In this document: positions 1,566 to 18,522 of the stretch, piece by piece
Layout: each line of letters starts with the position of its first letter
How positions within the stretch are numbered: position 1 is the first letter of the stretch
DNA from: Xiphophorus maculatus
Taxonomy: Eukaryota > Chordata > Actinopteri > Cyprinodontiformes > Poeciliidae
DNA length: 64,000 nucleotides
NCBI RefSeq assembly: GCF_002775205.1
Contig: NC_036458.1
Coordinates: 3,378,560 to 3,442,559, forward strand
Reading direction: 5' to 3'
The notes under the pieces: model-generated
Seen by the model: only the letters and a program-made list of their open reading frames with translations
Told to the model about the DNA's origin: nothing
Database searches by the model: none
Translations under genes and position numbers: made by a program

Positions 1566-3281
1566 TGAAGGTTATCCTGCAATAGTCAGCCCCGCCCACT
1601 CCTCACTACTACCCAGGGCTGCCTACTGACCAGTTCTCTGTCTAACAGGTCCGGAAAATCTCTGAGACCTGGGTATTACCCTAAAAGTACTCTATAAGAG
1701 ATAATCTATTTAAACTGGTGGCGAAAGTGATTCGTCTAGCTCTAACTACCTCCAATCCAGAAGTTATGACCCTTTACAGTTAAGAAACAATCAGCTGAGT
1801 AGCCCTCACAGCTGCATAATTCCAATAACCACTTCTGTTAACGGTAGCCCACTTTCTAAATCATAACTTGCACTTGGAACCGGCTAGATTATGTTTAGTG
1901 ACTTAGATGTAAGTCCCAGGGTCATTATTTATTCTCACCAAAGGAAATTATGAAGCCTCCTATTTACTGGAATCATGTACATTAGTTTTCCCTTAATTAA
2001 AAGAACTGAACGAAGATTAAATGACTCTATTAATTCCAATGTCCACCAACCTCTTTAGAATTTTATAGTATAAATTTATTAAGCAAGCTTAAGCAGGGAT
2101 ATGCGACATACAAATCAATAATCAATCGTAAATAATTCAAAAACAGTGTAATAAAATTTACATGTACAATCATACTACCCTGTCCTCTTTTCCCTGACTA
2201 AAGTCGCAAGTTCTGAGATGGAATTTCAATGAGCAGATTCAACTCATACCCAGACGATGGTGGATCTTTGGCAACAGGAATTTCTAGCATCCTTGGTTGA
2301 GGTCTTTGCCTTGTGTGGAAAAAACCCTCTTTAGAAAAGAAACAAAGCAGAACGGGTCCGAATCCTTTGGCAAAACCCAGTTCCTCATCCCTGAGGGAGC
2401 TTTGTCCTTCCTCCAAGTCTTGTTGCAGAGTTTGTAATTGCTGGGCTGAGACGAGACCGACGATCGAATGAAGAACCAGGGATGGGGCGATGGAACCCAG
2501 TCCTTCCTTGGCGGTGTGAAGTCCGAACTCTCCCGTGGTTCTGAAGTGCGGTCCGTGGCTCAATCTGCTTCAGCAAGTTGTCTCTCCTTCTGCGCCGTCG
2601 GACTGGGAACAACTGGTTCCTCTTCTCAGCCCCTTTTTATGCATCTCTCCACCATGTGTGTGTATGGGGAGGTTTGGCCTACGTGACTTTCTCCACATCT
2701 GCTGTTTCTCATGAAAAAGTCCTCACATTGCCCAATCTATTTCTGCTGACCATGGTGGAAAGTCCCGTACTTCCCCTTTCTCCGTTGCTTCAGCCAAACT
2801 CAACACTCCAACCATCCTGTGCGCTCTGACCATCTGTTCAGAACTGCTTGCGACATTTCCTGTTTCAGGACTGTGCTGTATTCCTCTCTTTTTCTATAAC
2901 CCACTATTATGTATTATAGCTCATTAAACACATTAAATCTGTTGTTAAACCTGTTTGAATTAATTTCAAATGATTACAACTTCACATCATCACAAGTTTG
3001 ATCCTTAGTTAACAATCAATCACATCTCTTACTTATTATAATTCATCAACCATAATCTTTCCACAGTTAATTCATTACAGAAATCATTACAGATCACATT
3101 TCAGATAATACATTTCAGAAGGTTATTATGTGATTACTTGTATTCATTTTACTATTCCTTCATATTCAATTTAATTAGCTTTTAATCAAACTACAAGATT
3201 ACTTATTTTCTCTCAGGCCTCTATGCACCTTTTCTGCATGCACCCGGAAAGATCTCACACCCCATGCCAGTTTTCTTGACA
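1566..3281 (-). repeat. 3' LTR of the retrovirus
   Basis: This 1,716-bp repeat matches 16,807-18,522 at a constant offset of 15,241 bp. On the coding strand it starts TGTCAAGAAAAC and ends GATAACCTTCA. It contains a TATA-like box (complement of 2,633-2,640) and an AATAAA (complement of 2,075-2,080), which suggests U3 of about 0.65 kb and a long R. The open frames inside it begin at TTG and are not annotated as genes. Confidence 0.95.
2075..2080 (-). terminator. Candidate polyadenylation signal of the 3' LTR
   Basis: AATAAA on the minus strand, about 560 bp downstream of the TATA-like box. A second AATAAA is at 1,928-1,933, so the end of R is uncertain. Confidence 0.4.
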
Positions 3282-3331: not shown

Positions 3332-4165
3332 TCAAAAGAGATCAAGTCCATCATCACAAGTGATAGTGAGGATGTCCCGCTCATAGCAGGTAACCGGAGA
3401 CAATGAAGGTGTCCAGGAATCCACAACCGCATACTCCGACAGATTGGATGGCGGAGAAAGCCAACGTTCTGCGCCCAAATCGTTGTCAAGTGTAGAGTCA
3501 CCTGAGACGGAAAGGGTGGAACGTTCCAGCGGAGGCGGCAGAGGCGAAGGCAAGTCCATGCCGAAGTCGGGCAGCGTTGATGGATTGTTGCAGTAGTCGT
3601 CCAACTCTGCCAGCAGATTCTGGAAATCCATATCACTTGGTGATGGAGATGAAGGGGAAAGGGTATCCTCATTCTGGCATGCTTGGGGAGATGAACTGAG
3701 GTTCTCAGTTTGGGTACCTCTCTCGTTAGTCGCACTGCTGGCTTGGCATCCGACGTCGATAAACAAATCCGGAGACACGGGACGTGTAGGCGGAAGATAA
3801 TCGCCCACCGCCACAATTCGGCCATCCAACAGATGTAAAGTTGGGAGGCATTGCCGAGTAAGTTGGTGTTCCCACAACTTATGAATTACGGGCAGCCGTA
3901 GCCCCGTATACAATGGATATGCTGGGAAGTCGTCGTCGGCTAGGCCAAATGCAGAGGTCCACACGATTTTGTGCACCCGTTCCAGGGATCTAGATGTGGA
4001 ATCCGCTATGTAGGGCAAATCCTCCAGCCCTGTAGCGCAGAGAATTGCCGTTACATCATTAAAATGGCTGCTCACGCATTTGTGACACCAGCGGGCGGAC
4101 GATGCCACCCAAATGAATCCATAGGATTCTGCGGTGATCCCACATCCCACACAGCAGGTTGATGC
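3332..4165 (-). CDS. orfD: spliced transactivator-like ORF
   Basis: An exon of 277 codons preceded by a good splice acceptor (pyrimidine tract then CTCCTCAG, exon from 4,165). It has no ATG near its start, so an upstream coding exon, not identified, must supply the start. The N-terminal part is Cys-rich (CCVGC, then CHKC and further His/Cys), a candidate zinc site. The C-terminal half is Ser/Pro-rich and acidic with hydrophobic/acidic patches (DFQNLLAELDDY and the terminal DDGLDLF), typical of activation domains. Position next to the 3' LTR and architecture suggest an LTR transactivator analogous to foamy Tas. The function is inferred from composition. Confidence 0.6.
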   Translation of the reverse strand, partial: ASTCCVGCGITAESYGFIWVASSARWCHKCVSSHFNDVTAILCATGLEDLPYIADSTSRSLERVHKIVWTSAFGLADDDFPAYPLYTGLRLPVIHKLWEHQLTRQCLPTLHLLDGRIVAVGDYLPPTRPVSPDLFIDVGCQASSATNERGTQTENLSSSPQACQNEDTLSPSSPSPSDMDFQNLLAELDDYCNNPSTLPDFGMDLPSPLPPPLERSTLSVSGDSTLDNDLGAERWLSPPSNLSEYAVVDSWTPSLSPVTCYERDILTITCDDGLDLF

Positions 4166-4275: not shown

Positions 4276-4983
4276 TTAAGCCCGTGTGCCAGCTTGTTTT
4301 GCGAGCCAAGGTGAATTAATCACAGGAGCCGAAATGTCATGATCTGGTGCCGGTTCACCTCGATCATAGACATGAGCTGAATCATGGAATATTGCCGCGT
4401 AGGTCATCAGCCATACAACAATGGCGAGGTCCGAGGTTTCATGAAGCCAGTAGAGGACCACCAGGATCCCCCAAACCGTTGCCCAAAGAGCCAGAATTAC
4501 CCACTTTTGCATCCAAATTCGCCGTCCTCGACCCTTGATAGCCAAGGCCTGGCGCGCTAAGTAGATGAGGATAGATACTGCGAAAAGCCCTTCTAGAATG
4601 GCTGTGAGAATCTTAAATGGGGCGGCTCGTGTAGCTTGTGCGCCCCCCAGGACCAATTCCAGTATCAGGGCTGCGGTGTCGGTGATGAGCCACAGGCAGA
4701 CCACAACGCCCCTGCGCCAATTGATGCGAGTACGGCCCATCAAGTAACAGGCAAAGAGGGACGAAGCCAACCCCCATCTGTGGAGAATGATTGGACGGAG
4801 GATAAGCTTGGCATATCCTTGTAGCGCGACGAAGATCCTCATAGGATGTCCCTTGGGCCAAGGACCGGTGTGGCAGAAGACTACCCAGGCCAGGGTAATC
4901 CCTAAGTGCTCAATGGTACTCACTTGAATCGGTGCAAAAAGTGAGTTGGGATTTGATGAGTTGGTCGAAGAGTTGTTTTCCAT
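4276..4983 (-). CDS. orfC: polytopic membrane protein
   Basis: A 235-aa frame from the first ATG (4,983, adequate Kozak context ATCATGG). Four to six hydrophobic segments cover most of the protein, including GITLAWVVFC, VVVCLWLITDTAALILELVL, AILEGLFAVSILIYLA, WVILALWATVWGILVVLYWL and LAIVVWLMTYAAIF. The N-terminus is Asn/Ser-rich and the C-terminal ~35 residues are hydrophilic. No family is recognised. The frame is the same as env and is stop-free back to the env TAA at 5,071, so either separate initiation or low-level readthrough of the env stop could express it. Polytopic accessory proteins are unusual in retroviruses. Confidence 0.7.
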   Translation of the reverse strand: MENNSSTNSSNPNSLFAPIQVSTIEHLGITLAWVVFCHTGPWPKGHPMRIFVALQGYAKLILRPIILHRWGLASSLFACYLMGRTRINWRRGVVVCLWLITDTAALILELVLGGAQATRAAPFKILTAILEGLFAVSILIYLARQALAIKGRGRRIWMQKWVILALWATVWGILVVLYWLHETSDLAIVVWLMTYAAIFHDSAHVYDRGEPAPDHDISAPVINSPWLAKQAGTRA

Positions 4984-5070
4984 GATGTGAGATGATGGTC
5001 GCTCTGGATCAGATCCTGTCGGCAGCTGCGATGAAGGTTGAATGGGTCGCAGGCACACGGCAGCTCTCTC

Positions 5071-7071
5071 TTATGCAGGAGTAGGCTCCTCCTTAGGGGG
5101 GAGGGGCTGGTAGTTCCTCTTTTTGCAACGACAAAGTGCTTTCAGCCACGCCTCCAAGACGATTTTGCCGATGAGTATTGCTACGGCGACGCCCAGGAGT
5201 CCTAAGAGATATGGCCATAGCACGCTCAAAGCGTCTAGCAGCCACTGTTCAACAATGTTGAGGCCTTCTTCCACCACATGAGCAATTTCTTCCACAACCT
5301 CGGTGGCGACGGCCACCAAAGTTGCTCCCATAGTCTCATACCAGAAACAGTCATGTCTATTAGAGCCTTCTCCACATTGCTGCCAATGCTCCATAGTGGT
5401 GGAGCAGGTGAGATTGGAATACAACAGGTTGGGTCCTACCCAGTCAAACCCTGAGTCGATGTTCCCTTCACACAGACTTTTCCGAAAAGCATGTCCTTCG
5501 GCGATGGCTATAAGGGGATTTGGAATGAACGGAACGGGTAGTCCAAGAATGCTCTTGCGCTTCTGAAGATGATATCCTAGGATTGCGTCGGTGCATGTCC
5601 GTCCGCTCACTATGGCCCTCCGCCATGTGCCATTGATTTTCCGCCAAGTAACCTCAGAAGAGTGAGTGTCATACTCCTCTGCATAATGTTCCTCGCAGTA
5701 GCTTTCCCAACCTCGAACGGTTTGGCAGGGTCTCCTGGCCAAACTGATCGTGCATTCGAGGACCCGTCTTGTCGTGTTTCTACAGGTCATGCGCCAAGGT
5801 CTTGGGTTGACATAACTGTCAGGTCTCCAAAAAACTCCAGGCCATATCATGCGGTCTTTCGAATAAACCGTGGCGATGTACTGGTACTTGACCCAGTAGT
5901 TTGTTGATTCCGTGAGGCATGGTGTTACCCAAGCTTCAAACTCATCTTGTTGGAGTCCCCACCACTCGTAGTCCCAATTTCGAGTGTAATCCTCGTACCA
6001 GGCTCGCAAAGCCCATTTGGCAGTAGGTGCTTTTTCAGGATCAGGGCAGTTGTACCTCCAGGTGGAGTGAAGAGCGTTCCCCGTTTGCCAGAGGTCACAA
6101 CGTGGCGATGAGTGGGTTTTCCTCCAACAGGTGTCATTAAGGCTCTCAAAAATTCTTTTGGCGACACATTTGTCAATTTTTGCAAAGTCATTTTTAGGAA
6201 CTTTCAGAAGGTCATCAGGAGTTGGAAGGGGTTGTGTACGCAAATTGGCAATGTGTAGCTCCTCCAAACCAGTATGAGAGCGAACCGTTCCCTCCGGGAA
6301 GTCTCCCATAAAGAACGTCTGGTCTTTGGCTATGTATGTCCATGGGAATGAGTTGTTCAGCCAGGTTTCAACCTCTGTACGGATTGTGCGTGTAGAGTGC
6401 CACAAATCAGCCCAGTATTCTTCTATGGCTGTAACTATATAATTCCGTCCTGCACATTGCACAAACTTATTCCAGAGGCAAGGATTCAACCAACTAAAGT
6501 GGTGTCTATAACAGTGCTTTTGCTCCTCATCATACATAAACCGTCTAGGTCCTTGTCTGATCAGGAAAGCCGTCATGTTGGTCAAATTGGCTGATGTAGG
6601 CAGCATCGTTGTATTGACTGGAAGATTACCTCGGGAGGCATTTCGATAGGTCCAGTTGCCCGTTGGTGCTGTAGGGATGATGTCATCCTTTCTGCAGTTC
6701 AGGTGGATGTCTCCCCAAAACTCCCCTCGTGGAAGCCAGGCCCGACAGCCTGAGGACCTGTGTGGGGCTGGGTATACTACTTCGGTATCCCAGTACCCTT
6801 GACTTGGCATCAATAGCAGCGATCGACAAGCCATGTTGCAATGCCATTCTGGCATACCTCGGTCCGGGTGAATCCAGTTGCATCTGACGGTCCGTCGTTC
6901 TTTGTTTTGCAGAACCCGTATCCAGCAGAGCACTCCAGTCTCGAGGAAGTCATAGTTGTAGATCTCCCAGGTGCGATTCAGAAGGTCGTCCAGAGTGGAG
7001 TCGTTCAATCCGAAGGCTCGGCGCTCCACGTACTTTTTCCCGTTGTCTTTGGCGAACAACCCGGTTCGGTT
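5071..7071 (-). CDS. env: Env glycoprotein, main frame
   Basis: Surface glycoprotein frame of about 666 codons, open from 7,071. The first possible start codon is a TTG at 7,059, so it has no proper start of its own and probably continues the leader by frameshift or splicing. Visible features are about a dozen N-X-S/T sequons, many cysteines and Trp-rich segments, a basic KRKS stretch about 160 residues before the end that might be a protease site, an amphipathic helix (VATEVVEEIAHVVEEGL), one hydrophobic membrane span about 25-50 residues from the C-terminus, and a short tail with CRCKK and a Pro-rich end. The Env call rests on architecture and position, not on a recognised family motif. The frame remains open past its TAA into orfC. 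Confidence 0.85.
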   Translation of the reverse strand, partial: NRTGLFAKDNGKKYVERRAFGLNDSTLDDLLNRTWEIYNYDFLETGVLCWIRVLQNKERRTVRCNWIHPDRGMPEWHCNMACRSLLLMPSQGYWDTEVVYPAPHRSSGCRAWLPRGEFWGDIHLNCRKDDIIPTAPTGNWTYRNASRGNLPVNTTMLPTSANLTNMTAFLIRQGPRRFMYDEEQKHCYRHHFSWLNPCLWNKFVQCAGRNYIVTAIEEYWADLWHSTRTIRTEVETWLNNSFPWTYIAKDQTFFMGDFPEGTVRSHTGLEELHIANLRTQPLPTPDDLLKVPKNDFAKIDKCVAKRIFESLNDTCWRKTHSSPRCDLWQTGNALHSTWRYNCPDPEKAPTAKWALRAWYEDYTRNWDYEWWGLQQDEFEAWVTPCLTESTNYWVKYQYIATVYSKDRMIWPGVFWRPDSYVNPRPWRMTCRNTTRRVLECTISLARRPCQTVRGWESYCEEHYAEEYDTHSSEVTWRKINGTWRRAIVSGRTCTDAILGYHLQKRKSILGLPVPFIPNPLIAIAEGHAFRKSLCEGNIDSGFDWVGPNLLYSNLTCSTTMEHWQQCGEGSNRHDCFWYETMGATLVAVATEVVEEIAHVVEEGLNIVEQWLLDALSVLWPYLLGLLGVAVAILIGKIVLEAWLKALCRCKKRNYQPLPPKEEPTPA
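6995..7041 (-). promoter_or_regulatory. Candidate -1 ribosomal frameshift signal in env
   Basis: The minus strand has the canonical slippery heptamer G GGA AAA at 7,041-7,035, in register with the leader frame (codon starts at 7,040 and 7,037). A 5-nt spacer is followed by a perfect 6-bp stem, GTGGAG (7,029-7,024) with CTCCAC (7,000-6,995). Its loop contains a second small hairpin (CCGA/TCGG) and the leader-frame stop codon. A -1 slip enters exactly the main Env frame. Confidence 0.6.
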
Positions 7072-7352
7072 TTAGAATGTCCATAGGTGACCCTTGTATG
7101 CGTAAGATACCACGGTCCAACTCCGATGAAGTAGAAGATAGTAGCAAGAACAGCAGCAGCAAACAGCAGGGCAAGAAGCGTTAGCAGCCCTTTCAGGCAT
7201 AGGGTTTTTCTGGTTATCGTAGTCGTTTTCCGTAGCAAGGGTTCGTTAGAGATTTCCGAGTCGTCGTCGGTGTCAGTAGAGCTGTCTGATTCCGATGTAA
7301 CATCCAGCAACTCCGGGTCTGTAGGTCGGCGCCTCATGCCGATAGCATCCAT
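7005..7352 (-). CDS. env: Env leader frame (type II membrane segment)
   Basis: A 115-aa frame from a true ATG that overlaps the orfB stop by 19 nt. An acidic N-terminal domain (about 40 residues with SESDSSTDTDDDSE) is followed by one strong hydrophobic segment at about residues 53-76. This matches the layout of a foamy-type Env leader, with a cytoplasmic N-terminus and then a membrane anchor. The frame closes within a hairpin loop at 7,005, and the main Env frame lies in -1 relative to it. The break may be natural, because a frameshift signal sits in the overlap and no other gene of the provirus is broken. A separate small membrane protein is the alternative. Confidence 0.7.
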   Translation of the reverse strand: MDAIGMRRRPTDPELLDVTSESDSSTDTDDDSEISNEPLLRKTTTITRKTLCLKGLLTLLALLFAAAVLATIFYFIGVGPWYLTHTRVTYGHSKTEPGCSPKTTGKSTWSAEPSD

Positions 7353-8437
7353 CCTGGCCAGATTAGTGCCTCTCTGGGATCCGCTGTATCAGGCGCTGTA
7401 CAGATTTTTCTCAAAGAGTTGAGGTGGCCTTGGTTGGCAGGGTTCTTTCCAACCCGTCTGGTGGCCCTTCTCTGCTGCAGGGCTGTATATATGGGAGAGG
7501 GGTAGGGTAAATCAGGCTCCAACCCCCTCCACACCCACTTCCAGTGGAACACCCTCCAGTAGTCCGGCCTAGGGAATGGGCCTGGGGCGGTTCCATTTTT
7601 CAGCGCCTGGTCTTGCCAGGATTCGTGTTTGTACCCTATTGGGGCAGGTACTGAGATATAGGTGTACAATGATTGTCCATGCAGAGTTAGTCTAGTGCGG
7701 TACCCCCAGGTTGACGGAGTAAAAATCCTCTGGTGTGGTGGATTGGGGTAGACCCTGTCTATTTCCAATTTCAATGGAAGCCTGGTGTTATTAAATATAT
7801 AACATTCTGGATTTATTTCCCTCTTTACTATAGTTCTCGCCATACTTCGTGAAGTGGTCCAAATGACCATGTCATTGAGTGAAATTTCACAATACAGTCC
7901 TTGCAGTGGTTCAAGATAATGGGGACCCCACCTAATCCGTAGCTCGATCCCCTGTAACCTGAAATACACTGTATTAAAAGTCCACGGTAGAGATCTTGGG
8001 CACATAGGGGAGATTGATGCAACATTAACCGTGTTGTCGGATCCTCTTCCTTTCCAAGCGGGCGGTGCGGTAGGGATAAATAAATGTGGCTTCATGGCCG
8101 GGGGCGTCGTGTATTCTTCACTTTCCCCCACCTCTTTTACGTTTTGGAAATTGGTGGGTCGGAGATATATGAGATACTTAAGAAAATAGGCCTCAGTGAG
8201 CGGATTGGAAACAGTGAAATCTTCTCTTGGCATATCTAGTAGAATGGAGGTGGTAGGGAGTTTTAAAAACGGGCCTCTGTCTGATAGTCCCGATGAGACT
8301 CCAACCCCCACTTTGAACAATCTAGTCACAAAACACTGTCTCCCCTTTCGTTTTTTGGTTTTTTGCTGACCTGCAGACTCGACGACTCGTTTTCCTCCTT
8401 CCGGTGCGTCCATCAGTCTTGGTTTGTCTTTCTCCAT
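7334..8437 (-). CDS. orfB: unrecognised basic retroviral protein
   Basis: An intact 367-aa frame starting at a true ATG inside the end of orfA (25-nt overlap) and ending 19 nt inside the Env-leader frame. I do not recognise it. It opens with a strongly basic stretch (KTKKRKGR, residues 26-33) that could be a nuclear-localisation or RNA-binding signal. The body is rich in Trp, Tyr and Pro with alternating hydrophobic strands, like a compact beta-rich domain, and the C-terminal part contains RRATRR. No membrane segment was seen. Overlaps on both sides indicate a compact, multiply spliced region. Confidence 0.78.
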   Translation of the reverse strand: MEKDKPRLMDAPEGGKRVVESAGQQKTKKRKGRQCFVTRLFKVGVGVSSGLSDRGPFLKLPTTSILLDMPREDFTVSNPLTEAYFLKYLIYLRPTNFQNVKEVGESEEYTTPPAMKPHLFIPTAPPAWKGRGSDNTVNVASISPMCPRSLPWTFNTVYFRLQGIELRIRWGPHYLEPLQGLYCEISLNDMVIWTTSRSMARTIVKREINPECYIFNNTRLPLKLEIDRVYPNPPHQRIFTPSTWGYRTRLTLHGQSLYTYISVPAPIGYKHESWQDQALKNGTAPGPFPRPDYWRVFHWKWVWRGLEPDLPYPSPIYTALQQRRATRRVGKNPANQGHLNSLRKICTAPDTADPREALIWPGWMLSA

Positions 8438-9780
8438 GGAAATGCTGAGGCGAGCTTCTGCCAGGCGTGAGTTTTGGATTTCTTCTTGGGAGGCTCCGGC
8501 TCCGTACTGGACACGGTGGCGTGAGTCTGCTCGTCTGGTACCACTTTGATGGCTGCTCCGACTGAGTAGATCCCTTTATAGGGGACGGTGATCATGCGCA
8601 CTGACAGCTGGACATGACAGGAGGTGCTAGGATCAGAGGGCGTACTCGCCCTGTGAGCCACGCCTCCCGGGTGTTGCAAAACTCCATCCCGAAACTGGGA
8701 TTCCGCTGTCACCCAGTACAGGCAGGACTTCTCTTTTGGTCTCACCGCATTGCTGCCCCATCCTTCCACCTCTGTGGTGTAGTAATACATATCCGAGCTG
8801 CGCACCCCATCTTCTCTTGGTACATCCGGCAGATCCACTATGGGTATCGTGCAGTCATTGATGACCTCCAAAATTAGATGTGCCCAGGTGGTTAGTTCCC
8901 AGGGGCCTGTCCACCCACCGTTAACGGCTTGCTCTCGGGCGTCATCTGGGAGTGCACTTAGCTCCTCAGCTGATGGTTGGTATGCGTGAGGCCGATGTAC
9001 CCGGAAGACCACCGGAGAGTGGTTGGCATTCAATGGTGGACATGACAGGGATGCTCTAGCAGCGTCATATGGCCAGGCGGCTTGAACAGAATCCCACAGG
9101 ACATCATGGGGCCCTTCTTCCCTCTTCCACACCCATGGGTCCAATTCCTCTGGAGTGTTCGGAGGGGCGGAAGGTCCTGGTAATATTATCGGTATGGAGC
9201 TCCCATAGTTCGGCTGCACTTGCCCATAGGTTCTGTAATATCGCAGCGAGCTGTAAAATCTTGTCACTTGCCACCCTTCAGCTTCGCCTGTCAGTGTTAC
9301 CTCTCCCCTCTTCAGCTGTTCCTCGCACACAGGGCAGTGGTGTAGCTCATCTCCGTCCCACGTGCAATAACAAGTTCTTGGTTTTTCCTGGAGCCACCCC
9401 CATTGGGTTTCCAACTTAAGCCGGGGCAGGTAACCCACTCGGCAGTTCCCACAGACTGTGTTGTTCAATACCGTGACTGGGGAGACGCGAAGGTGTTGTA
9501 GCATCTCTGCGGTAGCCTCCTGGTGTCTTGGCTTCTCACGGCCCGGTCCTTCCCAGATAATGGGAAGATGGTGGTCGGCTAAACAAACCGGGCAGCCGCT
9601 TTTAGCTTTTCTCCAAACCAGCATCTCTCTGTCCTCCGACAGGACTCCATTTTTGGCCCAATCCAATTTCTTCAGGGCTCGTCCTGCCCAAATCCCTGAA
9701 GGGGTTCTTCTAATTACAACCACCCCTTTCACGGTGGCCAGTCCGAGATAGGGTGGAATGGTACATGATTCACTGGCCAT
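8413..9780 (-). CDS. orfA: unrecognised Cys-rich retroviral protein
   Basis: An intact 455-aa frame from a true ATG, starting 21 nt after the pol stop. I do not recognise a family. The N-terminal third has three CxxC pairs (Cys63/66, Cys110/113, Cys149/152) with His70-71 and His147-148 nearby, which suggests zinc binding. The middle is Trp/Pro-rich. The C-terminus has a nuclear-localisation-like cluster, PKKKSK (431-436), followed by a basic tail. No signal peptide or membrane segment is evident. It overlaps orfB by 25 nt. The position between pol and env recalls lentiviral vif/vpr genes, but no similarity to them was seen. The long open frame in an otherwise intact provirus supports function. 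Confidence 0.8.
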   Translation of the reverse strand: MASESCTIPPYLGLATVKGVVVIRRTPSGIWAGRALKKLDWAKNGVLSEDREMLVWRKAKSGCPVCLADHHLPIIWEGPGREKPRHQEATAEMLQHLRVSPVTVLNNTVCGNCRVGYLPRLKLETQWGWLQEKPRTCYCTWDGDELHHCPVCEEQLKRGEVTLTGEAEGWQVTRFYSSLRYYRTYGQVQPNYGSSIPIILPGPSAPPNTPEELDPWVWKREEGPHDVLWDSVQAAWPYDAARASLSCPPLNANHSPVVFRVHRPHAYQPSAEELSALPDDAREQAVNGGWTGPWELTTWAHLILEVINDCTIPIVDLPDVPREDGVRSSDMYYYTTEVEGWGSNAVRPKEKSCLYWVTAESQFRDGVLQHPGGVAHRASTPSDPSTSCHVQLSVRMITVPYKGIYSVGAAIKVVPDEQTHATVSSTEPEPPKKKSKTHAWQKLASAFPWRKTNQD

Positions 9781-9801
9781 TTCACCGGCTTCTGTTTCGC
9801 T

Positions 9802-12800
9802 TTAGTCAGGAACCGGCTTGAGCTGCTCAACTCCTTGGATCCCTTTTCTTTCCAGCAATACTGTGTTCCTATCCAGTACTTTTTTGACGATGTCAGTTGT
9901 CTCAAACTTGGGTTTTACTGCTGCATGTACAGGTTGCTCTCTTGCTTTGACCCACACGCGCTGTCCCTCTCGGAATGGCACTCTGGGCGTCAGCTTCTCC
10001 TTTTTGTCGCTGGAGCCCCGCCCCACTTCCTTCGTGGTGAACGGCCGTTGGTTGAGTTCCATCGCAGGGGCGGGTCTTTCGGCTCTGCTTCTGTCGTTCA
10101 GGGCCTGCCCTATTTCCACCGCTTGGGTGCTCCAACTGTTGGTGTTAGCATTTTTAGCTATCCAGCTTTTCACTAACCCTATGGCTCGTTCCACCACTCC
10201 GTTAGCTTGTGGGGTATAGGGTGGCGAGTAAACTCGCATTACTCCATACTTCTGACACCACTGGTCAACCTGTGAATTACGGAAATGAGTCCCATTGTCC
10301 GTGCGCAGCTCTTTCGGGATTCCCAGGGCACTGCATACTTGTTCCAGCATGCCGACAACGCTATTGCCGTTTGCTTTCCTGGCTGCTTTTGTAGTTACAA
10401 ACCCCGACATGGAATCCACCAGCACTAAGAGGTACTTCTCACCTCTCCTTCCTGTTATCCCCATGGGTCCTGCAACATCCATGCAGACTGAGCCCCAGGG
10501 GACCGTGCTTTTGATGGACAACCCATCCATCCGCTGCCCTCGGCGACCTGCGTTGTATTGACCACACACTTCACAGTCCCTTAGCACGCGTTGGACTTGT
10601 TTCACTGGGATCCAAAGGTCTTGCTCCTCCAGTTCCTTACGGGTAGGTCGCACGCCTGCATGTCCAAGGGCCTCATGCACGCTCCGCACGACCTCGACCA
10701 CGTATTCTTTTGGGACCTCCCGTCCTTTGGGAGTTCTGTCCCACTTCTCGGTACCGACAAAGACGATCTTCCTTTGTTGGACATAACAGTCCACTTCATC
10801 ATTCCCACGCCAATGAGCTCCCTCATGCGTGTGTGCTCTTTGGTGCTGCACTTCTATTTCCAACTGCAGCTTCAGCTCAGCAATTTTTTTCCACAAATCT
10901 TTGTGTGCCACTGGCTTGCCCTTTGCTGTCTCGAAACCATTTTCTTCCCAAATGGCCAAGTCTTCTCTGAGAGCCTGAGCGCAGTAGTAACTGTCGGTTA
11001 CTAACCTGGCACTTTTGATTTTCCTTTTCACCAGCTCCAGCAATCCTTCCAGTACTGCCGTCACTTCTCCGGCTTGAGCACTACCGGGGGCCTTTCCTTT
11101 CTGGCGGCCTTTCTCTTTGCCGTCCTGCTTCAGAATAAATCCCCAGTATGCCGACTGGTCGGACCCCTTTCTGGATCCATCAGTGTAGATTGTCCATTCC
11201 GGTTGTCCTGGCTTCTCAAGTGTTTCTTGTGGTTTTTTCTTACTGGTAGGTTGTGCTGGCCCAATTTCAAGCTCCGGGTCCAGCAAGATGTCCTCCCATC
11301 TTCCCCACCGAGTATTGGTTGCTTTAGTACTTTCCACAGTTCCTTTTCTTAGGTACTTGTGAACTTGGCTTTGTGTGATGACTTTGACTGGTTGTCCTTG
11401 TGCTAAATCTTTCAGCACACCCCAATAGCGGGCTAACACCGCTAGCTCTTTTTCTTCCTGCGGGTATTTCTTTTCAACAGAAGTTAGAGTGTAACTCCAC
11501 AGGGTAACCAAGCCTCCATTTTCGTTACTCACTTTGATCATGGCATCGTCATTCTCGCAGCTGATCTCTGCCACCAGCCTTTCTGACAAACTCCTTGGCT
11601 CCAATCTCACAGCTGCTTGAATGGCCCTTCTCAGTTCCTCTAGGTTCTGTTGATTTGCTGCTGTCCAAACCCAGGGTCTTTTTCCGTCTTTCTCGTCGTC
11701 CTCACTTTTCCTCAGGCAGTGGTACAAGGGTTTGGCATATTTCTGATAGTTGGGTACATGGTCTCTGACATAGTTGCACAGTCCCAATATTTTCTGCAGG
11801 TCATTTTCTGACTGTGGTGGTTGAATGTTTGTCAGCTTTTCTCTGTACCCATCCGAGAGTCCCAAGTCCGACGTGACTTGGAAACCCAGATAATTCACTT
11901 GGAACTGTCCAAATTGACATTTCTTGAGGTTTAGCTTCAAACCTGCTTTGGTGAGATTTTTAACCACTTTTCGTAGCCTCTCTAGGTGTTCTTCTTCTGT
12001 GTCATCAGCAATAAAAACATCATCAATGTACACAGTTGCACCCACGTCCCCCAACACTTCCATCACTGCTGACTGGAACACGTTTGGGGAGTTCTTGTAC
12101 CCCTGGGGTAACCTTTGCCACACATAGCTCTTGCCTTTGTGGGTGAATGCAGTTTTACCTTGCGACTGTCTGGCGAGGCGTAGAGAGAAAAATCCATTGG
12201 CTAGGTCGATGCAGGACTTGAACTTTTTGACTCGAAGAGTTTTCAACGCTCCTTGTGGATTGATCAAACTGGCTCGGTTTGCTATTGTTCTCCGATTCAG
12301 GGCCTTGAAGTTGATGACTGGCCTCCAACCCCCTCCAGCCGATTCAGGTTTCTTCACCGCCTGGATGGGGCTGTTGGTGATCGGGTTGAGCTCCTCTCTG
12401 ATGATCTCTAGGGCGCCCAGCTCCTTCACGATCTTGTCCATCTCCTCGACTGCTCCTGGGTTCAACGGGTACTGCCGAACAGGTGGATGAACCCCACCTT
12501 CGATGTGATGAACAAACTTTGGGCCCAAATCTCCACAATCATTTTTGAACCGTGCTACCTGTGCTGTAGCGATGATTTCACGTAGCTCCTCTTTCCCAGC
12601 CGGGGAGAAGTCACTCTCTTCAAGTTTCTGTTCTGTCACCGTTGGTATGTCGACCGGTTTGTACCAGTCTTGCTTCTCTGATCCTGTTTGTGTTGGGCCG
12701 ACTTTCACCAATCTTGCTTTCAAGCTCGTCAGCCTTCTCTCCAGCCTACGATGTGTGCTTTTCTTTTTACTGAGTTCGTCTAAGTCTTTTACTGTAAGGA

Positions 12801-13032
12801 GATTGTAGGGACCTTTCACCCATACTACTCCTTTCCAGGTCCCATATGGCATTTCTTCTATTTTCCCATTGGCAAACTGAACCTTCAGGTGTCCTGCTGT
12901 TTTTAGGTCTTTGCGGGTCATCGACACCTCCGCTCCGGTGTCCACTAGGTAGGGCACTCCTTCCACTTTAGCATAGATTTCGTCCCCTTCCCAGTAGGCA
13001 TTGTCTAAAACGACCCGCGACCTGGACGCCAT
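9802..13032 (-). CDS. pol: Pol polyprotein (protease, RT, RNase H, integrase)
   Basis: A 1,076-aa polyprotein with all enzymes intact. Protease is at the extreme N-terminus with DTGAE at 31-35. RT spans about 185-430, with Asp276 in IDLANGF and YIDD at 335-338. A connection segment follows. RNase H is at about 610-755 with Asp618 (YTDGS), Glu656, Asp680 (VTDSYY) and Asp748. The integrase zinc motif is His786/His791/Cys820/Cys823 and the core triad Asp852, Asp912, Glu948 has the standard 35-residue spacing. RT connection and RNase H look foamy-like. The ATG overlaps the gag stop as TAATG, in the -1 frame relative to gag, and the pol frame is closed only 10 codons upstream. Pol is therefore probably made from its own spliced RNA, as in foamy viruses, or by reinitiation, and not by gag-pol frameshifting. 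No broken catalytic residue was seen. Confidence 0.97.
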   Translation of the reverse strand: MASRSRVVLDNAYWEGDEIYAKVEGVPYLVDTGAEVSMTRKDLKTAGHLKVQFANGKIEEMPYGTWKGVVWVKGPYNLLTVKDLDELSKKKSTHRRLERRLTSLKARLVKVGPTQTGSEKQDWYKPVDIPTVTEQKLEESDFSPAGKEELREIIATAQVARFKNDCGDLGPKFVHHIEGGVHPPVRQYPLNPGAVEEMDKIVKELGALEIIREELNPITNSPIQAVKKPESAGGGWRPVINFKALNRRTIANRASLINPQGALKTLRVKKFKSCIDLANGFFSLRLARQSQGKTAFTHKGKSYVWQRLPQGYKNSPNVFQSAVMEVLGDVGATVYIDDVFIADDTEEEHLERLRKVVKNLTKAGLKLNLKKCQFGQFQVNYLGFQVTSDLGLSDGYREKLTNIQPPQSENDLQKILGLCNYVRDHVPNYQKYAKPLYHCLRKSEDDEKDGKRPWVWTAANQQNLEELRRAIQAAVRLEPRSLSERLVAEISCENDDAMIKVSNENGGLVTLWSYTLTSVEKKYPQEEKELAVLARYWGVLKDLAQGQPVKVITQSQVHKYLRKGTVESTKATNTRWGRWEDILLDPELEIGPAQPTSKKKPQETLEKPGQPEWTIYTDGSRKGSDQSAYWGFILKQDGKEKGRQKGKAPGSAQAGEVTAVLEGLLELVKRKIKSARLVTDSYYCAQALREDLAIWEENGFETAKGKPVAHKDLWKKIAELKLQLEIEVQHQRAHTHEGAHWRGNDEVDCYVQQRKIVFVGTEKWDRTPKGREVPKEYVVEVVRSVHEALGHAGVRPTRKELEEQDLWIPVKQVQRVLRDCEVCGQYNAGRRGQRMDGLSIKSTVPWGSVCMDVAGPMGITGRRGEKYLLVLVDSMSGFVTTKAARKANGNSVVGMLEQVCSALGIPKELRTDNGTHFRNSQVDQWCQKYGVMRVYSPPYTPQANGVVERAIGLVKSWIAKNANTNSWSTQAVEIGQALNDRSRAERPAPAMELNQRPFTTKEVGRGSSDKKEKLTPRVPFREGQRVWVKAREQPVHAAVKPKFETTDIVKKVLDRNTVLLERKGIQGVEQLKPVPD

Positions 13033-16000
13033 TACTTTGGTGACCCTCCGGCCCCGGCTTTACGGGACTCACGGAGGGCCGTCCTCTCTTCTGGGCTCAA
13101 TTTCCTATACTCCTCATCTGTCAGGAACTGACCTTTCCCTGGCTGATTTGATGAAGCCGGAGGGTTGGTCGGTTTCCCTTGTGGTCCTGGTGGTTTCTGC
13201 TGGAACGGTCGGTTCCGGAAGTTGGGTGGCGGTGTTCCTTGTTGAAACGGTCTGCTCTGGAAGTTGGATGGCGGTGCTCCTTGCTGGAACGGTCTACCCT
13301 GGAAGTTGGATGGTTGTCTGATGTTAACCCTTCCAGGTGGCTTTGCCGGTTGGCTAGCCTCCTTCTTCCTTTTGTCCTCGTAGTACTGTTGTTCCAGGTC
13401 GAATCCTTGCACTGCTACATCCATCTGAGCGACTGTTGTGCTTCTCACTGGCAACTTCACGAACACGATCTCTCCTCTGCGTCCTTTTGTCACCTCACGC
13501 AGTACTTTCACATATCTCGCAGGGGAAACGGTCTGCTTAAGTGTGTGCCAAAGCGGTTCCAACCGGCTTCCCTTGTCCAGCCGTCCTCTGGCTCTCTTCA
13601 CCTGGGACTCTTCATCATCCATGTCCTCCAACACCAGCCTCTCATAGTTGCTCTGTGCTGAATCTGTTCCAACCATCGGGTCCGCAGTCACGCTGGTCAG
13701 CCACAACTTTTTGGCTCCCTCGTGGTTGGTGGTAGACAACACAGTTGGCCAAACATCTTTTAGATATTCTTCATTGTTTTCGTCTGCGTTTTTACTCCTA
13801 ATCACCAGCCTTAGATTCTTCAATTCGGCGTAAGCATCCTGTCCCGTATTAGTGGCAGGTAGCTGAGTCAACGCCCCTGGTGGTCTCACCGGGATCTGTG
13901 GTCCTGGCTCCGAAGACGTCGCCTGAGGTTCCTCTTCATCAGCCGACACTTCGTCCAGCTTCTGTCGAGCCTCCCTGGAGTATTTGAAGGCAGCTTTCTT
14001 CAGTCGTCGCAGCATCACATCATACATAATTCCAATGTATGCATTCCTGAAGTTGGTAGTCAGGGAATAGTGTGCTGTCAGAGTGGAGCAGGATGGTGTC
14101 ATCAGGATGTTAGCCCATTCTCCGATTGTTGCTTCCACCTCGAGCTGCACCCGGTCTCCCAATCTGCTGGCCCATCCTGCCGGGATCTGGTACTCGGTTT
14201 GGCCGACCTCTGGTACATACGTACGCCGTCCGTCCTTAGCCTGCACGGGACCCCAGGTCACGTCTCTTGCCAGTCTCTCAGAAGATCCTTCGATGTCAAA
14301 GGTTTCTATTTCTTTCTTCTTACCCCGATGCTGTCCTGTTCGGAGTGTCTTATGCTCGGCCGGTAGTTGCTTTGGGTCGGAGAAGACGCTGCCGTGATCG
14401 CTCTCCTCTTCTTCTTCTCCAGGATGTTCGATCTCCGGTTGCTCCTCTTCGTCCTCCGAGTCACTGATGTCCTCATACTGCTGTTGTCGAAGAGGTTCTC
14501 TCCTGGGGGAGTTCAGCGGTCGAATCTTGGCTGGTTTCATCGGTCCTTCTTCTTTCGGGACCGTCGGCTGCTCATTCTTGACTTTTCCCGCATTGGGTTT
14601 TTTCAGTTCACTGTGGCTCTCTTCAAACGAGAACTCCTTAACGTACTTTGCTGCGGAGAACCCTGGTTCAACAGGTGTCTCCTTTATCTTTATCCTGGGT
14701 GGCTGCACGGCCTTGGCTTTTCCTATCTGGGTGGTGTTTAAAACCTCACTTTGGGGAATTTTTAAGGGATATTTCTTGATTTCTTGCGATGGATGGCTAA
14801 TGCGGCATTGCTCCTCCATCTCAGCTGCCAATTTCACCCCTTGCTCAGTGCGGAGTCGATGCAGACGGGGGTCAACCACCACCACCACTTCTTTGAACAC
14901 AAAGAAATGACTGTTGGTCTTGGCTATATTCACCACTCCGTTCTCCGCTATTGATCTGGCGGTGTCCCTTGGCAGATCCGGCGATCTCAGTCCTTGTACA
15001 CTCACTATGACTCTTCTCATGCATTCGTTGCTGGCCGCCGCTAAGCCCCGCTCGAGTCCATGCCACATCTTCTTCCGATATTCCTCCAAACCCTCTCCTT
15101 TTCGGTAGACGTCAATCGGGACTAGGATTACAGCACCATAAGGGAGACTATAGCCGTTCATCAAGACTACTTCTCCCCTTGTCTTTGGGCTACAGGTGGC
15201 TTCTAGCAATTTTGAATCCGCTTGGTAATATTGCCCTGCTTGGTCCTCAAGGCTGCGTCTGAACTTTCGATTGTGGATCTTGTATCTGTCATTGGTGAAC
15301 ACAATCAGTCCGTCACCCTCAAGATCCCATATTCTTCCAATAACCTGATAAATCCGGAGGCCGGTCTGCAGTCTAAAGTTGCTGGCCCCCGGTGGTATTT
15401 CGGCTAATTCTCGGGCCATCCTCCAGGTGTCCGATTTCTGAGTCTTCTTCTTAGGGCGACCGGGGTCCCGCTGCTCCTCGTCCGATTCCTCCCTGTCCTC
15501 GTCGGAACTGCTGGCCGCTGGGGTCTCCGTAGGTGGTAGTGGATGCCTTCTCTCCGTGCTGTGGGCTCGGGGATGAAACCCGGGCTCCAGACCTCGTCGC
15601 AGGGACCAGTCCCTGGCCGCTTGCTCCAACTGCTCCTCAGTGAGGCCGCCGACGAGCGCTTCCTCGGGGTCTTCCTCATTGGCTGGTGCAGGTGGGATGT
15701 CCTCGTTCCGCGATGGACCTGGTGGAGCTGAGGGACCTCCATCGCTGTCGTCGCTGCTGTCACCGCCGGCGTTGTCGTCGCTGCCGCCCGTCAGGTCTAT
15801 CAGATACCTCGGAGGTTGCTTCGTCTGGCGAGTCGGTGTCGTGGTTCTGCTGGGCAGTCGGGACGGAGGCTCAGCCACCTCCGACCCTGCCTCTTCGAGG
15901 GCTCGCTCCTTTTCCTTGCCCTCTTTGTAGGTTGAAAGTCTCTGCATGGCCTCAGCGTAGTCTTTGTACTGGTTCACCCCCTTGGCGTTTGGGTCCACCA

Positions 16001-16487
16001 GGATTCCATCGATGCCCGCCGCCAAGGTAGCTGTTTTTACTACGCGGTCATACTTTTCGGAGGGGCTGTGGACAATTCGTAGCTCACCATCCGCCCATCC
16101 TTCAAGGAGGTCAGCGAACCATTCCAGCCATCCTCTAACCTCCGGCTTCTTAGCCACTTTCACTGGGCATCTGACGACCCCCAGTCGGTGGCCGTGTCTA
16201 AGCTGGGTGCAGTAGTATATCCGTTTTTGCACTATGATTTCCATTGGGCTCCGAGCAACGTCCTTGCTCATGGTGAAGTGAGAATCAAAGAACATCTTTT
16301 TATTTATCTCAGTCCAGGATTCCAATCCATCACCAAGTAATATCAACATTACAGGAAATTGCGATAATGCAGATTTGGAAAGATGGGATTGATGATTCTT
16401 CCCATCCCGGCTGATGTTGCTTGCCTCTTGTTCCATTGCTGGCTTTTGTAGGGGCTCCAGTTCCCCTCTTTCTTCTTCTTCACTCAT
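13032..16487 (-). CDS. gag: Gag polyprotein with internal macrodomain-like region
   Basis: Structural polyprotein of the retrovirus, 1,151 aa from a true ATG at 16,487-16,485. It is much longer than usual Gag. Residues 45-180 may be the membrane-proximal part. Residues 205-360 are an acidic, Ser/Pro-rich linker with two late-domain motifs, PPRY (225-228) and PSAP (252-255). Residues 375-540 resemble a macrodomain: a GDGLIVFTND strand, TRGEVVLMNGYSLP, a loop equivalent at SVQGLRSPDLP followed by a helix, and a final hydrophobic strand. Residues 770-1,030 are the likely capsid region. Residues 1,059-1,100 hold three PSNFQ-RPFQQ repeats. No CCHC knuckle is present; the Arg/Gln/Pro-rich tail may bind nucleic acid, as GR boxes do in foamy Gag. 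The stop overlaps the pol ATG. The Gag assignment rests on position and architecture. Confidence 0.88.
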   Translation of the reverse strand: MSEEEERGELEPLQKPAMEQEASNISRDGKNHQSHLSKSALSQFPVMLILLGDGLESWTEINKKMFFDSHFTMSKDVARSPMEIIVQKRIYYCTQLRHGHRLGVVRCPVKVAKKPEVRGWLEWFADLLEGWADGELRIVHSPSEKYDRVVKTATLAAGIDGILVDPNAKGVNQYKDYAEAMQRLSTYKEGKEKERALEEAGSEVAEPPSRLPSRTTTPTRQTKQPPRYLIDLTGGSDDNAGGDSSDDSDGGPSAPPGPSRNEDIPPAPANEEDPEEALVGGLTEEQLEQAARDWSLRRGLEPGFHPRAHSTERRHPLPPTETPAASSSDEDREESDEEQRDPGRPKKKTQKSDTWRMARELAEIPPGASNFRLQTGLRIYQVIGRIWDLEGDGLIVFTNDRYKIHNRKFRRSLEDQAGQYYQADSKLLEATCSPKTRGEVVLMNGYSLPYGAVILVPIDVYRKGEGLEEYRKKMWHGLERGLAAASNECMRRVIVSVQGLRSPDLPRDTARSIAENGVVNIAKTNSHFFVFKEVVVVVDPRLHRLRTEQGVKLAAEMEEQCRISHPSQEIKKYPLKIPQSEVLNTTQIGKAKAVQPPRIKIKETPVEPGFSAAKYVKEFSFEESHSELKKPNAGKVKNEQPTVPKEEGPMKPAKIRPLNSPRREPLRQQQYEDISDSEDEEEQPEIEHPGEEEEESDHGSVFSDPKQLPAEHKTLRTGQHRGKKKEIETFDIEGSSERLARDVTWGPVQAKDGRRTYVPEVGQTEYQIPAGWASRLGDRVQLEVEATIGEWANILMTPSCSTLTAHYSLTTNFRNAYIGIMYDVMLRRLKKAAFKYSREARQKLDEVSADEEEPQATSSEPGPQIPVRPPGALTQLPATNTGQDAYAELKNLRLVIRSKNADENNEEYLKDVWPTVLSTTNHEGAKKLWLTSVTADPMVGTDSAQSNYERLVLEDMDDEESQVKRARGRLDKGSRLEPLWHTLKQTVSPARYVKVLREVTKGRRGEIVFVKLPVRSTTVAQMDVAVQGFDLEQQYYEDKRKKEASQPAKPPGRVNIRQPSNFQGRPFQQGAPPSNFQSRPFQQGTPPPNFRNRPFQQKPPGPQGKPTNPPASSNQPGKGQFLTDEEYRKLSPEERTALRESRKAGAGGSPK
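14868..15365 (-). other. Macrodomain-like segment of Gag (residues ~375-540)
   Basis: The order of elements follows the macrodomain fold: beta strand with GD and FTND in place of the VxxTN strand, helix, Cys, a GE-V-(x)2-GYSLP strand with the hydrophobic VILVP strand after it, a long helix, a VIVSVQG strand and phosphate-loop equivalent ending LP, then helix and terminal strand (VVVVVD). The Gly-rich loop that normally follows the first Asn is missing, so ADP-ribose hydrolysis is doubtful; binding or a structural role is possible. This was recognised by eye and needs a profile search. Confidence 0.7.
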
Positions 16488-16788: not shown

Positions 16789-16806
16789 GCCCCACGTTGG
16801 GCGCCA
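16789..16806 (-). other. Primer-binding site, tRNA-Lys1,2
   Basis: The 18 nt directly after the 5' LTR read TGGCGCCCAACGTGGGGC on the coding strand, an exact match to the 3' end of tRNA-Lys1,2. Foamy viruses use this primer, as do some lentiviruses and betaretroviruses. Confidence 0.95.
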
Positions 16807-18522
16807 TGAAGGTTATCCTGCAATAGTCAGCCCCGCCCACTCCTCACTACTACCCAGGGCTGCCTACTGACCAGTTCTCTGTCTAACAGGTCCGGAAAAT
16901 CTCTGAGACCTGGGTATTACCCTAAAAGTACTCTATAAGAGATAATCTATTTAAACTGGTGGCGAAAGTGATTCGTCTAGCTCTAACTACCTCCAATCCA
17001 GAAGTTATGACCCTTTACAGTTAAGAAACAATCAGCTGAGTAGCCCTCACAGCTGCATAATTCCAATAACCACTTCTGTTAACGGTAGCCCACTTTCTAA
17101 ATCATAACTTGCACTTGGAACCGGCTAGATTATGTTTAGTGACTTAGATGTAAGTCCCAGGGTCATTATTTATTCTCACCAAAGGAAATTATGAAGCCTC
17201 CTATTTACTGGAATCATGTACATTAGTTTTCCCTTAATTAAAAGAACTGAACGAAGATTAAATGACTCTATTAATTCCAATGTCCACCAACCTCTTTAGA
17301 ATTTTATAGTATAAATTTATTAAGCAAGCTTAAGCAGGGATATGCGACATACAAATCAATAATCAATCGTAAATAATTCAAAAACAGTGTAATAAAATTT
17401 ACATGTACAATCATACTACCCTGTCCTCTTTTCCCTGACTAAAGTCGCAAGTTCTGAGATGGAATTTCAATGAGCAGATTCAACTCATACCCAGACGATG
17501 GTGGATCTTTGGCAACAGGAATTTCTAGCATCCTTGGTTGAGGTCTTTGCCTTGTGTGGAAAAAACCCTCTTTAGAAAAGAAACAAAGCAGAACGGGTCC
17601 GAATCCTTTGGCAAAACCCAGTTCCTCATCCCTGAGGGAGCTTTGTCCTTCCTCCAAGTCTTGTTGCAGAGTTTGTAATTGCTGGGCTGAGACGAGACCG
17701 ACGATCGAATGAAGAACCAGGGATGGGGCGATGGAACCCAGTCCTTCCTTGGCGGTGTGAAGTCCGAACTCTCCCGTGGTTCTGAAGTGCGGTCCGTGGC
17801 TCAATCTGCTTCAGCAAGTTGTCTCTCCTTCTGCGCCGTCGGACTGGGAACAACTGGTTCCTCTTCTCAGCCCCTTTTTATGCATCTCTCCACCATGTGT
17901 GTGTATGGGGAGGTTTGGCCTACGTGACTTTCTCCACATCTGCTGTTTCTCATGAAAAAGTCCTCACATTGCCCAATCTATTTCTGCTGACCATGGTGGA
18001 AAGTCCCGTACTTCCCCTTTCTCCGTTGCTTCAGCCAAACTCAACACTCCAACCATCCTGTGCGCTCTGACCATCTGTTCAGAACTGCTTGCGACATTTC
18101 CTGTTTCAGGACTGTGCTGTATTCCTCTCTTTTTCTATAACCCACTATTATGTATTATAGCTCATTAAACACATTAAATCTGTTGTTAAACCTGTTTGAA
18201 TTAATTTCAAATGATTACAACTTCACATCATCACAAGTTTGATCCTTAGTTAACAATCAATCACATCTCTTACTTATTATAATTCATCAACCATAATCTT
18301 TCCACAGTTAATTCATTACAGAAATCATTACAGATCACATTTCAGATAATACATTTCAGAAGGTTATTATGTGATTACTTGTATTCATTTTACTATTCCT
18401 TCATATTCAATTTAATTAGCTTTTAATCAAACTACAAGATTACTTATTTTCTCTCAGGCCTCTATGCACCTTTTCTGCATGCACCCGGAAAGATCTCACA
18501 CCCCATGCCAGTTTTCTTGACA
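16807..18522 (-). repeat. 5' LTR of the retrovirus
   Basis: Second LTR, upstream of gag and directly abutting the primer-binding site. It has the same 1,716-bp length and the same ends as the 3' LTR. It should carry the active promoter of the provirus. Confidence 0.95.
17874..17881 (-). promoter_or_regulatory. TATA-like box of the 5' LTR
   Basis: The minus strand reads GCATAAAAAGGGGC. This is the best TATA-like sequence in the LTR and places the probable transcription start about 25-30 bp downstream, near 17,845-17,855. The same sequence is at 2,633-2,640 in the 3' LTR. Confidence 0.5.

What the first reader, a model, noticed from the sequence alone, without database searches (positions are those of the whole stretch)
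14868..15365. Macrodomain embedded in a retroviral Gag
Residues ~375-540 show the macrodomain succession GD...FTND, TRGEVVLMNGYSLP, SVQGLRSPDLP plus helix, and a terminal hydrophobic strand. Macrodomains are known from alphaviruses, coronaviruses and hepeviruses, where they counter host ADP-ribosylation; I know of none in an ordinary Gag. The Gly-rich loop is lost, hinting at a changed ligand.
Basis: partly seen in the sequence, partly recalled or inferred. Interest (0 to 1): 0.9.

Follow-up and report, generated by a model that had tools for sequence, protein, structure and literature searches.

The report
Macrodomain-like fold in fish retrovirus Gag
A recently integrated foamy-virus-like retrovirus in a fish genome carries, inside its Gag protein, a conserved domain that looks like a strongly altered macrodomain (the fold other viruses use against ADP-ribosylation), which would be unusual for a retroviral structural protein; what it binds is unknown.

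Summary
Gag residues 375-540 (window 15365-14868, minus strand) carry the motifs quoted. Several weak signals agree on a macrodomain. Pfam Macro matches 10 of 10 aligned members (best E 4.4e-4; 0 of 10 reach Pfam's cut-off). Profile comparison with the host's macrodomains gives P 7e-4; among 14 Gag slices only the 4 holding residues 438-454 gave P 0.006-0.03, the other 10 gave 0.19-0.61. A low-confidence AlphaFold model (pLDDT 44) has its 40 best PDB matches in chains that are or contain macrodomains, though at low TM-scores. The element is a 16,957-bp provirus with identical 1,716-bp LTRs and the layout published for fish foamy-like endogenous retroviruses. All 77 full-length C-terminal Gag matches listed have the domain beside them; it evolves under purifying selection (omega 0.26). 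The Gly-rich loop is gone; the adenine-contacting Asp remains in 1 of 13 rows; the catalytic-Asn slot keeps Asn in 15 of 15 copies, and the replacement loops are conserved. I read it as a repurposed, probably non-hydrolytic binding macrodomain. Separate macro-domain ORFs in fish ERVs are in print; my searches found no report of one inside a foamy-like Gag. Function is untested.

The parts
14853..15374 (-). Divergent macrodomain-like domain, Gag residues about 372-545
   Evidence: Pfam Macro sub-threshold; low-confidence AF2 model, PDB matches covering Gag residues about 398-541
15288..15344 (-). Residues 382-400 (VIGRIWDLEGDGLIVFTND): FTND aligns with the NAAN-type motif; adenine-Asp slot is R or G, catalytic-Asn slot is N
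   Evidence: hhalign and MAFFT against host macrodomains; counts in 15 copies; the adenine slot is placed by eye
15258..15284 (-). Loop 1, residues 402-410 (YKIHNRKFR), in place of the Gly-rich loop; conserved and basic
14970..15002 (-). Loop 2, residues 496-506 (SVQGLRSPDLP), assigned by eye to the place of the second phosphate loop (MAFFT did not align this part); conserved
13032..16487 (-). gag (by position), 1151 aa; no CCHC motif, basic tail with RPFQQ repeats
9802..13032 (-). pol, 1076 aa, own ATG overlapping the gag stop in another frame; best PDB matches named Pr125Pol and peptidase A9/RT/RNase H
8413..9780 (-). ORF 455 aa between pol and env, in the place of acc3 of published FLERVs
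   Evidence: PMC5512871 passages
7334..8437 (-). ORF 367 aa, in the place of acc4
5071..7059 (-). env-like ORF, 662 aa
   Evidence: position; no Pfam match at E<=1
7005..7352 (-). 115-aa ORF with one hydrophobic stretch, overlapping the env-like ORF in another frame
4276..5058 (-). hydrophobic ORF 260 aa, in the place of acc1
3332..4150 (-). ORF 272 aa, in the place of acc2
1566..3281 (-). 3' LTR, 1716 bp
16807..18522 (-). 5' LTR, 1716 bp, identical to the 3' LTR
16789..16806 (-). Primer binding site of tRNA-Lys type (type recalled)

Best explanation
[quoted passage not shown] It is a fixed, selected part of Gag. The Gly-rich phosphate loop and, nearly always, the Asp that holds adenine were replaced by other residues, which are themselves conserved. 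The slot of the catalytic Asn is still mostly Asn. Most likely mechanism (inferred, not shown): a non-hydrolytic binding module that rides on Gag into the particle and binds a ligand other than free ADP-ribose, such as an ADP-ribosylated or phosphate-rich partner (RNA or protein), in assembly or early after entry. The confidence given is for the identification (altered macrodomain fold within this Gag, unlikely to be a standard hydrolase); for the binding mechanism by itself I hold about 0.4.
For: Fold: Pfam Macro sub-threshold in 10 of 10 members of A3, in 6 of 10 proteins and in P0001 (E 0.011). hhalign of A3 against host PARP14-like macrodomains gives P 7.3e-4. Of 14 Gag slices, the 4 that hold residues 438-454 give P 0.006-0.03, the other 10 give 0.19-0.61. 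The AF2 model's elements include the order strand, strand, helix, strand, strand, helix, strand, helix, strand, helix. The first 40 of 40 Foldseek PDB rows are chains that are or contain macrodomains; the SPX entries are fusions with macroH2A. Maintenance: 77 of 77 full C-terminal Gag matches have a full domain match within 4 kb. omega is 0.26 in residues 375-540 against 0.50 in 181-355. Homologues at 52-64% identity occur in Gambusia, Poecilia, Xiphophorus couchianus, Ataeniobius and unnamed assemblies. Pocket: Asn slot N in 15 of 15 copies, adenine slot R in 11 and G in 4. Conservation of residues 399-409 and 496-506 is 0.906; circular shifts average 0.816 and 8 of 173 reach it.
Confidence: 0.7

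Rival explanations
1. The domain is a working ADP-ribose binder or mono-ADP-ribosylhydrolase of the alphavirus/coronavirus kind that undoes antiviral PARP modification of Gag or nearby proteins.
For: Macrodomain-like fold; Asn kept at the catalytic slot in 15 of 15 copies and 12 of 14 homologous rows. The host genome holds several macrodomain ORFs whose profile matches PARP14 best.
Against: The Gly-rich loop 1 is absent from all 14 rows that cover it; the adenine-Asp slot is Asp in 1 of 13 rows (P0008); Asn is replaced by Asp in P0001 and P0004.
Confidence: 0.2
2. The domain is a macrodomain fold kept only as a structural spacer or interaction surface of Gag, without a small ligand.
For: Canonical pocket loops are lost; core elements are retained in the model.
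Against: The blocks at the former pocket are more conserved than most other placements in the domain (8 of 173 circular shifts reach the value), which suggests a binding role there.
Confidence: 0.3
3. It is not a macrodomain but another alpha/beta domain with similar strand order (for example the threonyl-tRNA-synthetase editing-domain class), and the similarity is convergence of short motifs.
For: Low model confidence and low TM-scores; non-macrodomain rows from rank 41 in Foldseek and 6 of 50 in VIA; all Pfam matches below the cut-off.
Against: Sequence-only tests, which know nothing of the model, point to Macro at the same residues.
Confidence: 0.1

Closest known systems
Macro domain family PF01661 (macroH2A, PARP9/14, MacroD, viral nsP3/nsp3 macrodomains)
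   Same: Core order of strands and helices in the model; GD..LIV..N motif with Asn at the catalytic slot; GYxLPY-type turn before the central strand
   Different: No Gly-rich loop, adenine Asp nearly always lost, conserved KIHN-containing loop instead; below the Pfam cut-off; sits inside a retroviral Gag
Fish foamy-like endogenous retroviruses (AciFLERV, AliFLERV, platyfishEFV; PMC5512871, abstract and passages)
   Same: About 17 kb, gag-pol-acc3-acc4-env-acc1-acc2 order, similar ORF lengths, tRNA-Lys-type primer site
   Different: The passages I saw do not mention a macrodomain in gag; here it is recognised within that ORF
Fish ERVs with separate macro-domain ORFs (Basta et al. 2009, seen only as cited in PMC4977317)
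   Same: A retrovirus of ray-finned fish carrying a macro-domain protein
   Different: Mentioned there as additional ORFs of epsilon-like elements, not as part of the Gag of a foamy-like element
Macrodomains that lost activity in alphaviruses and host PARP14 (PMC10221186, abstract start and passages)
   Same: Viral or host macrodomain kept while catalytic residues are lost
   Different: Alphavirus non-structural protein and host protein; no sequence comparison was made here
SARS-CoV nsp3 Mac2/Mac3 (SUD) macrodomains (recalled)
   Same: Viral macrodomain folds without the ADP-ribose-binding residues that bind nucleic acid
   Different: Coronavirus replicase; no sequence comparison was made here

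Membership tests
Macro domain PF01661 | Score at or above Pfam's curated cut-off (22 bits) | tested here: not met
   Best member 20.6 bits, window slice 17.0
Macro domain PF01661 | Alpha/beta macro fold | tested here: inconclusive
Macro domain PF01661 | Gly-rich phosphate loop after the second conserved strand | tested here: not met
   KIHN-containing loop in 14 of 14 rows that cover it
Catalytic mono-ADP-ribosylhydrolase macrodomain | Asn at the end of the NAAN-type motif | tested here: met
   15 of 15 copies; 12 of 14 homologous rows, Asp in P0001 and P0004
Catalytic mono-ADP-ribosylhydrolase macrodomain | Asp contacting adenine | tested here: not met
   R in 11, G in 4 of 15 copies; Asp in 1 of 13 rows, P0008
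Catalytic mono-ADP-ribosylhydrolase macrodomain | ADP-ribose binding and hydrolysis | not testable with these tools
   Needs purified protein
Foamy-like retrovirus (FLERV) | Pol closest to foamy-virus Pol | tested here: met
   Best five PDB chains are PR-RT-RNase H/peptidase A9/Pr125Pol; that these are foamy viruses is recalled
Foamy-like retrovirus (FLERV) | Gag without CCHC zinc knuckle and pol with its own start codon | tested here: met
   No C..C....H....C in the ORF; pol ATG at 13032 in another frame
Foamy-like retrovirus (FLERV) | About 17 kb with acc3 and acc4 between pol and env, tRNA-Lys primer site | tested here: met
   Length, order and ORF sizes against PMC5512871 passages; the accessory proteins were not compared by sequence
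Foamy-virus Gag | Detectable homology to foamy Gag | tested here: inconclusive
   No Pfam Gag family listed at E<=10, no PDB sequence match for residues 700-1151 at E<=10

The most novel reading that the evidence does not exclude
A lineage of fish foamy-like retroviruses captured a macrodomain into Gag and rebuilt its pocket, so that every particle carries many copies of a sensor or binder for a new ligand (ADP-ribosylated host factor, or RNA) acting in assembly or just after entry. This would be a macrodomain used as a structural-protein module rather than as a replicase enzyme.
Probability: 0.35. Interest if true: 0.8.

Novelty: new variant of a known kind. Interest (0 to 1): 0.62.

Why it matters
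Viral macrodomains are known from replicase polyproteins and stand-alone proteins (PMC9503650 passages). One inside Gag would place it in the particle itself, in about as many copies as the structural protein, at the stage when incoming capsids meet host defences. It would also suggest an explanation for part of the unusually long gag ORF of this foamy-like virus, and would give a natural example of a macrodomain whose pocket changed while the fold was kept.

Tried and rejected
Ideas rejected. Chance motif match: rejected because sequence tests fall on the same residues and 10 of 14 slices away from residues 438-454 give nothing. A second macrodomain copy in residues 1-200: hhalign of residues 1-200 and 40-200 with the domain gives P 0.22. 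Origin from a particular host gene: the host macrodomains found are too distant to show it.

Searches that led nowhere: PDB by sequence with the slice and with the profile; NCBIfam for the Gag ORF and the slice; IMG/VR, one scan; phage records with pol, 460 records, best rows being RNase H regions; C-terminal Gag against PDB; tRNA scan. The single-sequence AF2 job gave pLDDT 36.5. Three old loci, L052, L053 and L054, showed only C-terminal Gag pieces and no macrodomain; they are fragmentary and I count them neither way. In BFVD no match reached E<=0.001; rank 13 is the Gag of a toad ERV at E 0.17, not followed beyond one paper search that listed one unrelated-looking paper.

Rows dropped: one search used the window and 14 of the 17 copies L009-L025 (L011, L013, L014 have split frames); L026-L028 were left out as decayed, L001-L008 as cut or near-identical. 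In one search one of the ten A3 rows was lost because two pasted pieces carried the same label; one search used all ten. One search used 17 rows; its strand and loop-1 lines are shifted by one residue against their labels, so the tested blocks are residues 399-409 and 496-506. The coordinate lists were typed. Match counts are lower bounds (one search scored 93 of 106 candidates).

Full report
What is there. The window lies in a 704-Mb genome of 101 contigs, at G000:C16. Window 1566-18522 is a provirus in minus orientation. Its two LTRs are 1,716 bp each and identical over their whole length; a primer site starting TGGCGCCCAACG directly follows the 5' LTR, and a possible 4-bp target duplication (AATT) lies in AT-rich flanks. 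Identical LTRs mean a recent insertion. ORFs run in the order gag (1151 aa), pol (1076 aa, own ATG, other frame), 455 aa, 367 aa, a 115-aa ORF with a hydrophobic stretch overlapping a 662-aa env-like ORF, 260 aa and 272 aa.

Which retrovirus. The best five PDB sequences for Pol are protease/RT/RNase H chains named Pr125Pol or peptidase A9, which I recall as foamy viruses. The layout fits the foamy-like elements of Aiewsakun and Katzourakis (PMC5512871; abstract and passages seen). They report 17.4-17.5 kb inferred genomes with gag, pol, acc3 (465 aa), acc4 (334 aa), env, acc1 (253 and 251 aa) and acc2 (234 aa) in the cichlid element, and name the platyfish element among known ones. In those passages ORF-1 is annotated as gag from knowledge of retroviral genome structure. 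The ORF here has no CCHC motif, as foamy Gag lacks it (PMC3705263, passages). No Gag family was matched by sequence, so 'Gag' rests on position and these features.

The observation. Pfam Macro is the only Pfam family listed for the whole ORF at E<=10 (E 0.17) and the better of two for the 215-aa slice (E 0.0057, 17 bits, cut-off 22). All 10 members of the domain alignment A3 (the window, pieces from three other species' proteins, six divergent genome copies) match Macro at E<=1, best 4.4e-4; DUF1877 matches 4 of the 10, best 0.02. In a separate scan, 6 of 10 proteins matched Macro (P0002, P0004, P0005 and three genome copies) and 4 did not (P0003 as a whole, P0006, P0007, P0008). P0001 matches at E 0.011. 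No one sequence passes the curated cut-off.

Profile comparison. hhalign of A3 with seven macrodomains of the same genome (their profile matches PARP14 best in the PDB) gives P 7.3e-4, probability 26%, and aligns FTND on the NAAN-type motif. As a position control I ran 14 slices of up to 215 aa from 15 Gag copies against the same host profile. The four that hold residues 438-454 (289-503, 355-569, 361-575, 433-647) gave P 0.006-0.03. The other ten gave 0.19-0.61, among them two that overlap only an edge of the region (217-431 and 505-719). The 15 copies are of one genome, so this signal is weaker than that of A3.

Conservation and selection. The genome search with the slice listed 86 matches, 81 of full length. 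Of the 81, 75 lie in open frames of at least 1000 aa and one has a stop inside the match. Of the 91 C-terminal Gag matches listed, 77 span the whole query, and 77 of 77 have a full domain match within 4 kb on the same strand. Two decayed copies at 44-70% identity over their pieces (L026, L027) still show the domain, and L028 shows part of it; three other old loci (L052, L053, L054) show only C-terminal Gag pieces. Over 15 Gag copies, 104 pooled non-independent pairs (Nei-Gojobori), omega is 0.26 for residues 375-540, 0.50 for 181-355, 0.24 for 546-780 (0.445 within 631-690, 0.07 within 721-780), 0.12 for 781-1000 and 0.35 for 1-180. The domain is thus constrained, more than the linker before it, though not more than the whole stretch after it. 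Homologous Gag pieces occur in Gambusia affinis (P0001), Poecilia latipinna (P0002), Xiphophorus couchianus (P0003, which looks like a chimeric gene model), Ataeniobius toweri (P0008) and unnamed assemblies (P0004-P0007): 1 of 1308, 3 of 7996 and 5 of 7995 scored candidates in three searches, at 52-64% identity to the window's piece.

The pocket. In 15 copies the slot of the catalytic Asn is N in 15; the slot of the adenine Asp is R in 11 and G in 4. Among 14 homologous rows (ten of A3, P0004, P0005, P0006, P0008) Asn is kept in 12 and is Asp in P0001 and P0004. The adenine slot is Asp in 1 of the 13 rows that cover it (P0008), which suggests, but does not show, that the ancestor had it. The Gly-rich loop is replaced by a loop with KIHN in 14 of 14 rows; in the 15 copies Y, K, I, H, N and F of YKIHNRKFR are invariant. 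The place that I assign by eye to the second phosphate loop reads SVQGLRSPDLP; MAFFT did not align that part with the host domains. Residues 399-409 and 496-506 together are more conserved (mean 0.906) than circularly shifted blocks (mean 0.816; 8 of 173 shifts reach it). The names of the adenine and catalytic slots follow general knowledge of macrodomains, not a call.

How it may work. Shown: a conserved, selected domain inside the gag-position ORF, with sequence similarity to macrodomains and altered pocket loops. Inferred: the fold; presence in the particle as part of Gag; a binding rather than hydrolytic role; a ligand other than free ADP-ribose. I put about 0.9 on the macrodomain fold and less than half on any single function.

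What is known. PMC4977317 (passages) says that epsilon-like sequences of ray-finned fish occasionally include extra ORFs, for example for CNPase or macro-domain proteins, citing Basta et al. 2009, which I have not seen. In a survey of NAD/ADP-ribose domains in viruses (PMC9503650, passages) the word retrovirus occurs in one place, on 2H domains. [quoted passage not shown] Searches: macro domain with foamy, endogenous retrovirus and fish (1 paper); macrodomain with gag, retrovirus and ADP-ribose (30 papers, 20 listed); foamy-like with teleost, accessory and gag (10 papers, 9 listed); Basta with macro domain (1 paper); macrodomain, spumavirus, foamy virus, gag, three of four terms (196 papers, 10 listed); Appr-1-p with endogenous retrovirus and fish (0); macrodomain with foamy virus (1 paper, on chikungunya virus, listing only); macrodomain with endogenous retrovirus and fish (6, listings only). 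What I saw of them shows no macrodomain in a foamy-like Gag; the listed papers were mostly not opened, and the library lacks most subscription papers.

Verdict. A real and, as far as these searches show, undescribed feature of a known kind of virus: a new variant of a known kind, interesting mainly because of where the domain sits and how its pocket changed.

Noticed in passing
window 15948-16370 (Gag residues about 40-180): A second conserved N-terminal block of Gag (LILLGDG..W, SPSEKYD.VVKTATLAAGIDGILV.P) with no Pfam family listed there and no resemblance to the macrodomain (P 0.22); its fold is unknown.
   Followed up: partly
window 1566-18522: Provirus with two identical 1,716-bp LTRs, one of many near-identical copies: seven domain matches in the genome, the window's own included, share the top score and lie in open 1159-aa frames, so recent activity is likely.
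   Followed up: partly
window 5071-7352: A 115-aa ORF with a hydrophobic stretch and the env-like ORF overlap in different frames; whether by design or by damage was not examined.
   Followed up: no
window 18523-20958 and before 1566: 129-bp tandem repeats next to the provirus, which seems to have inserted into such an array.
   Followed up: no
L033-L035 (G000:C7 28.86-28.90 Mb): Three host macrodomain ORFs of the PARP14-like set have NPST where others have NAAN, that is no Asn at the catalytic slot, so loss of that residue also occurs on the host side.
   Followed up: no
BFVD entry A0A2U9K508: The Gag of a cane-toad endogenous retrovirus appears as a weak structural match (rank 13, E 0.17); it may be worth testing for a similar insert.
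   Followed up: partly
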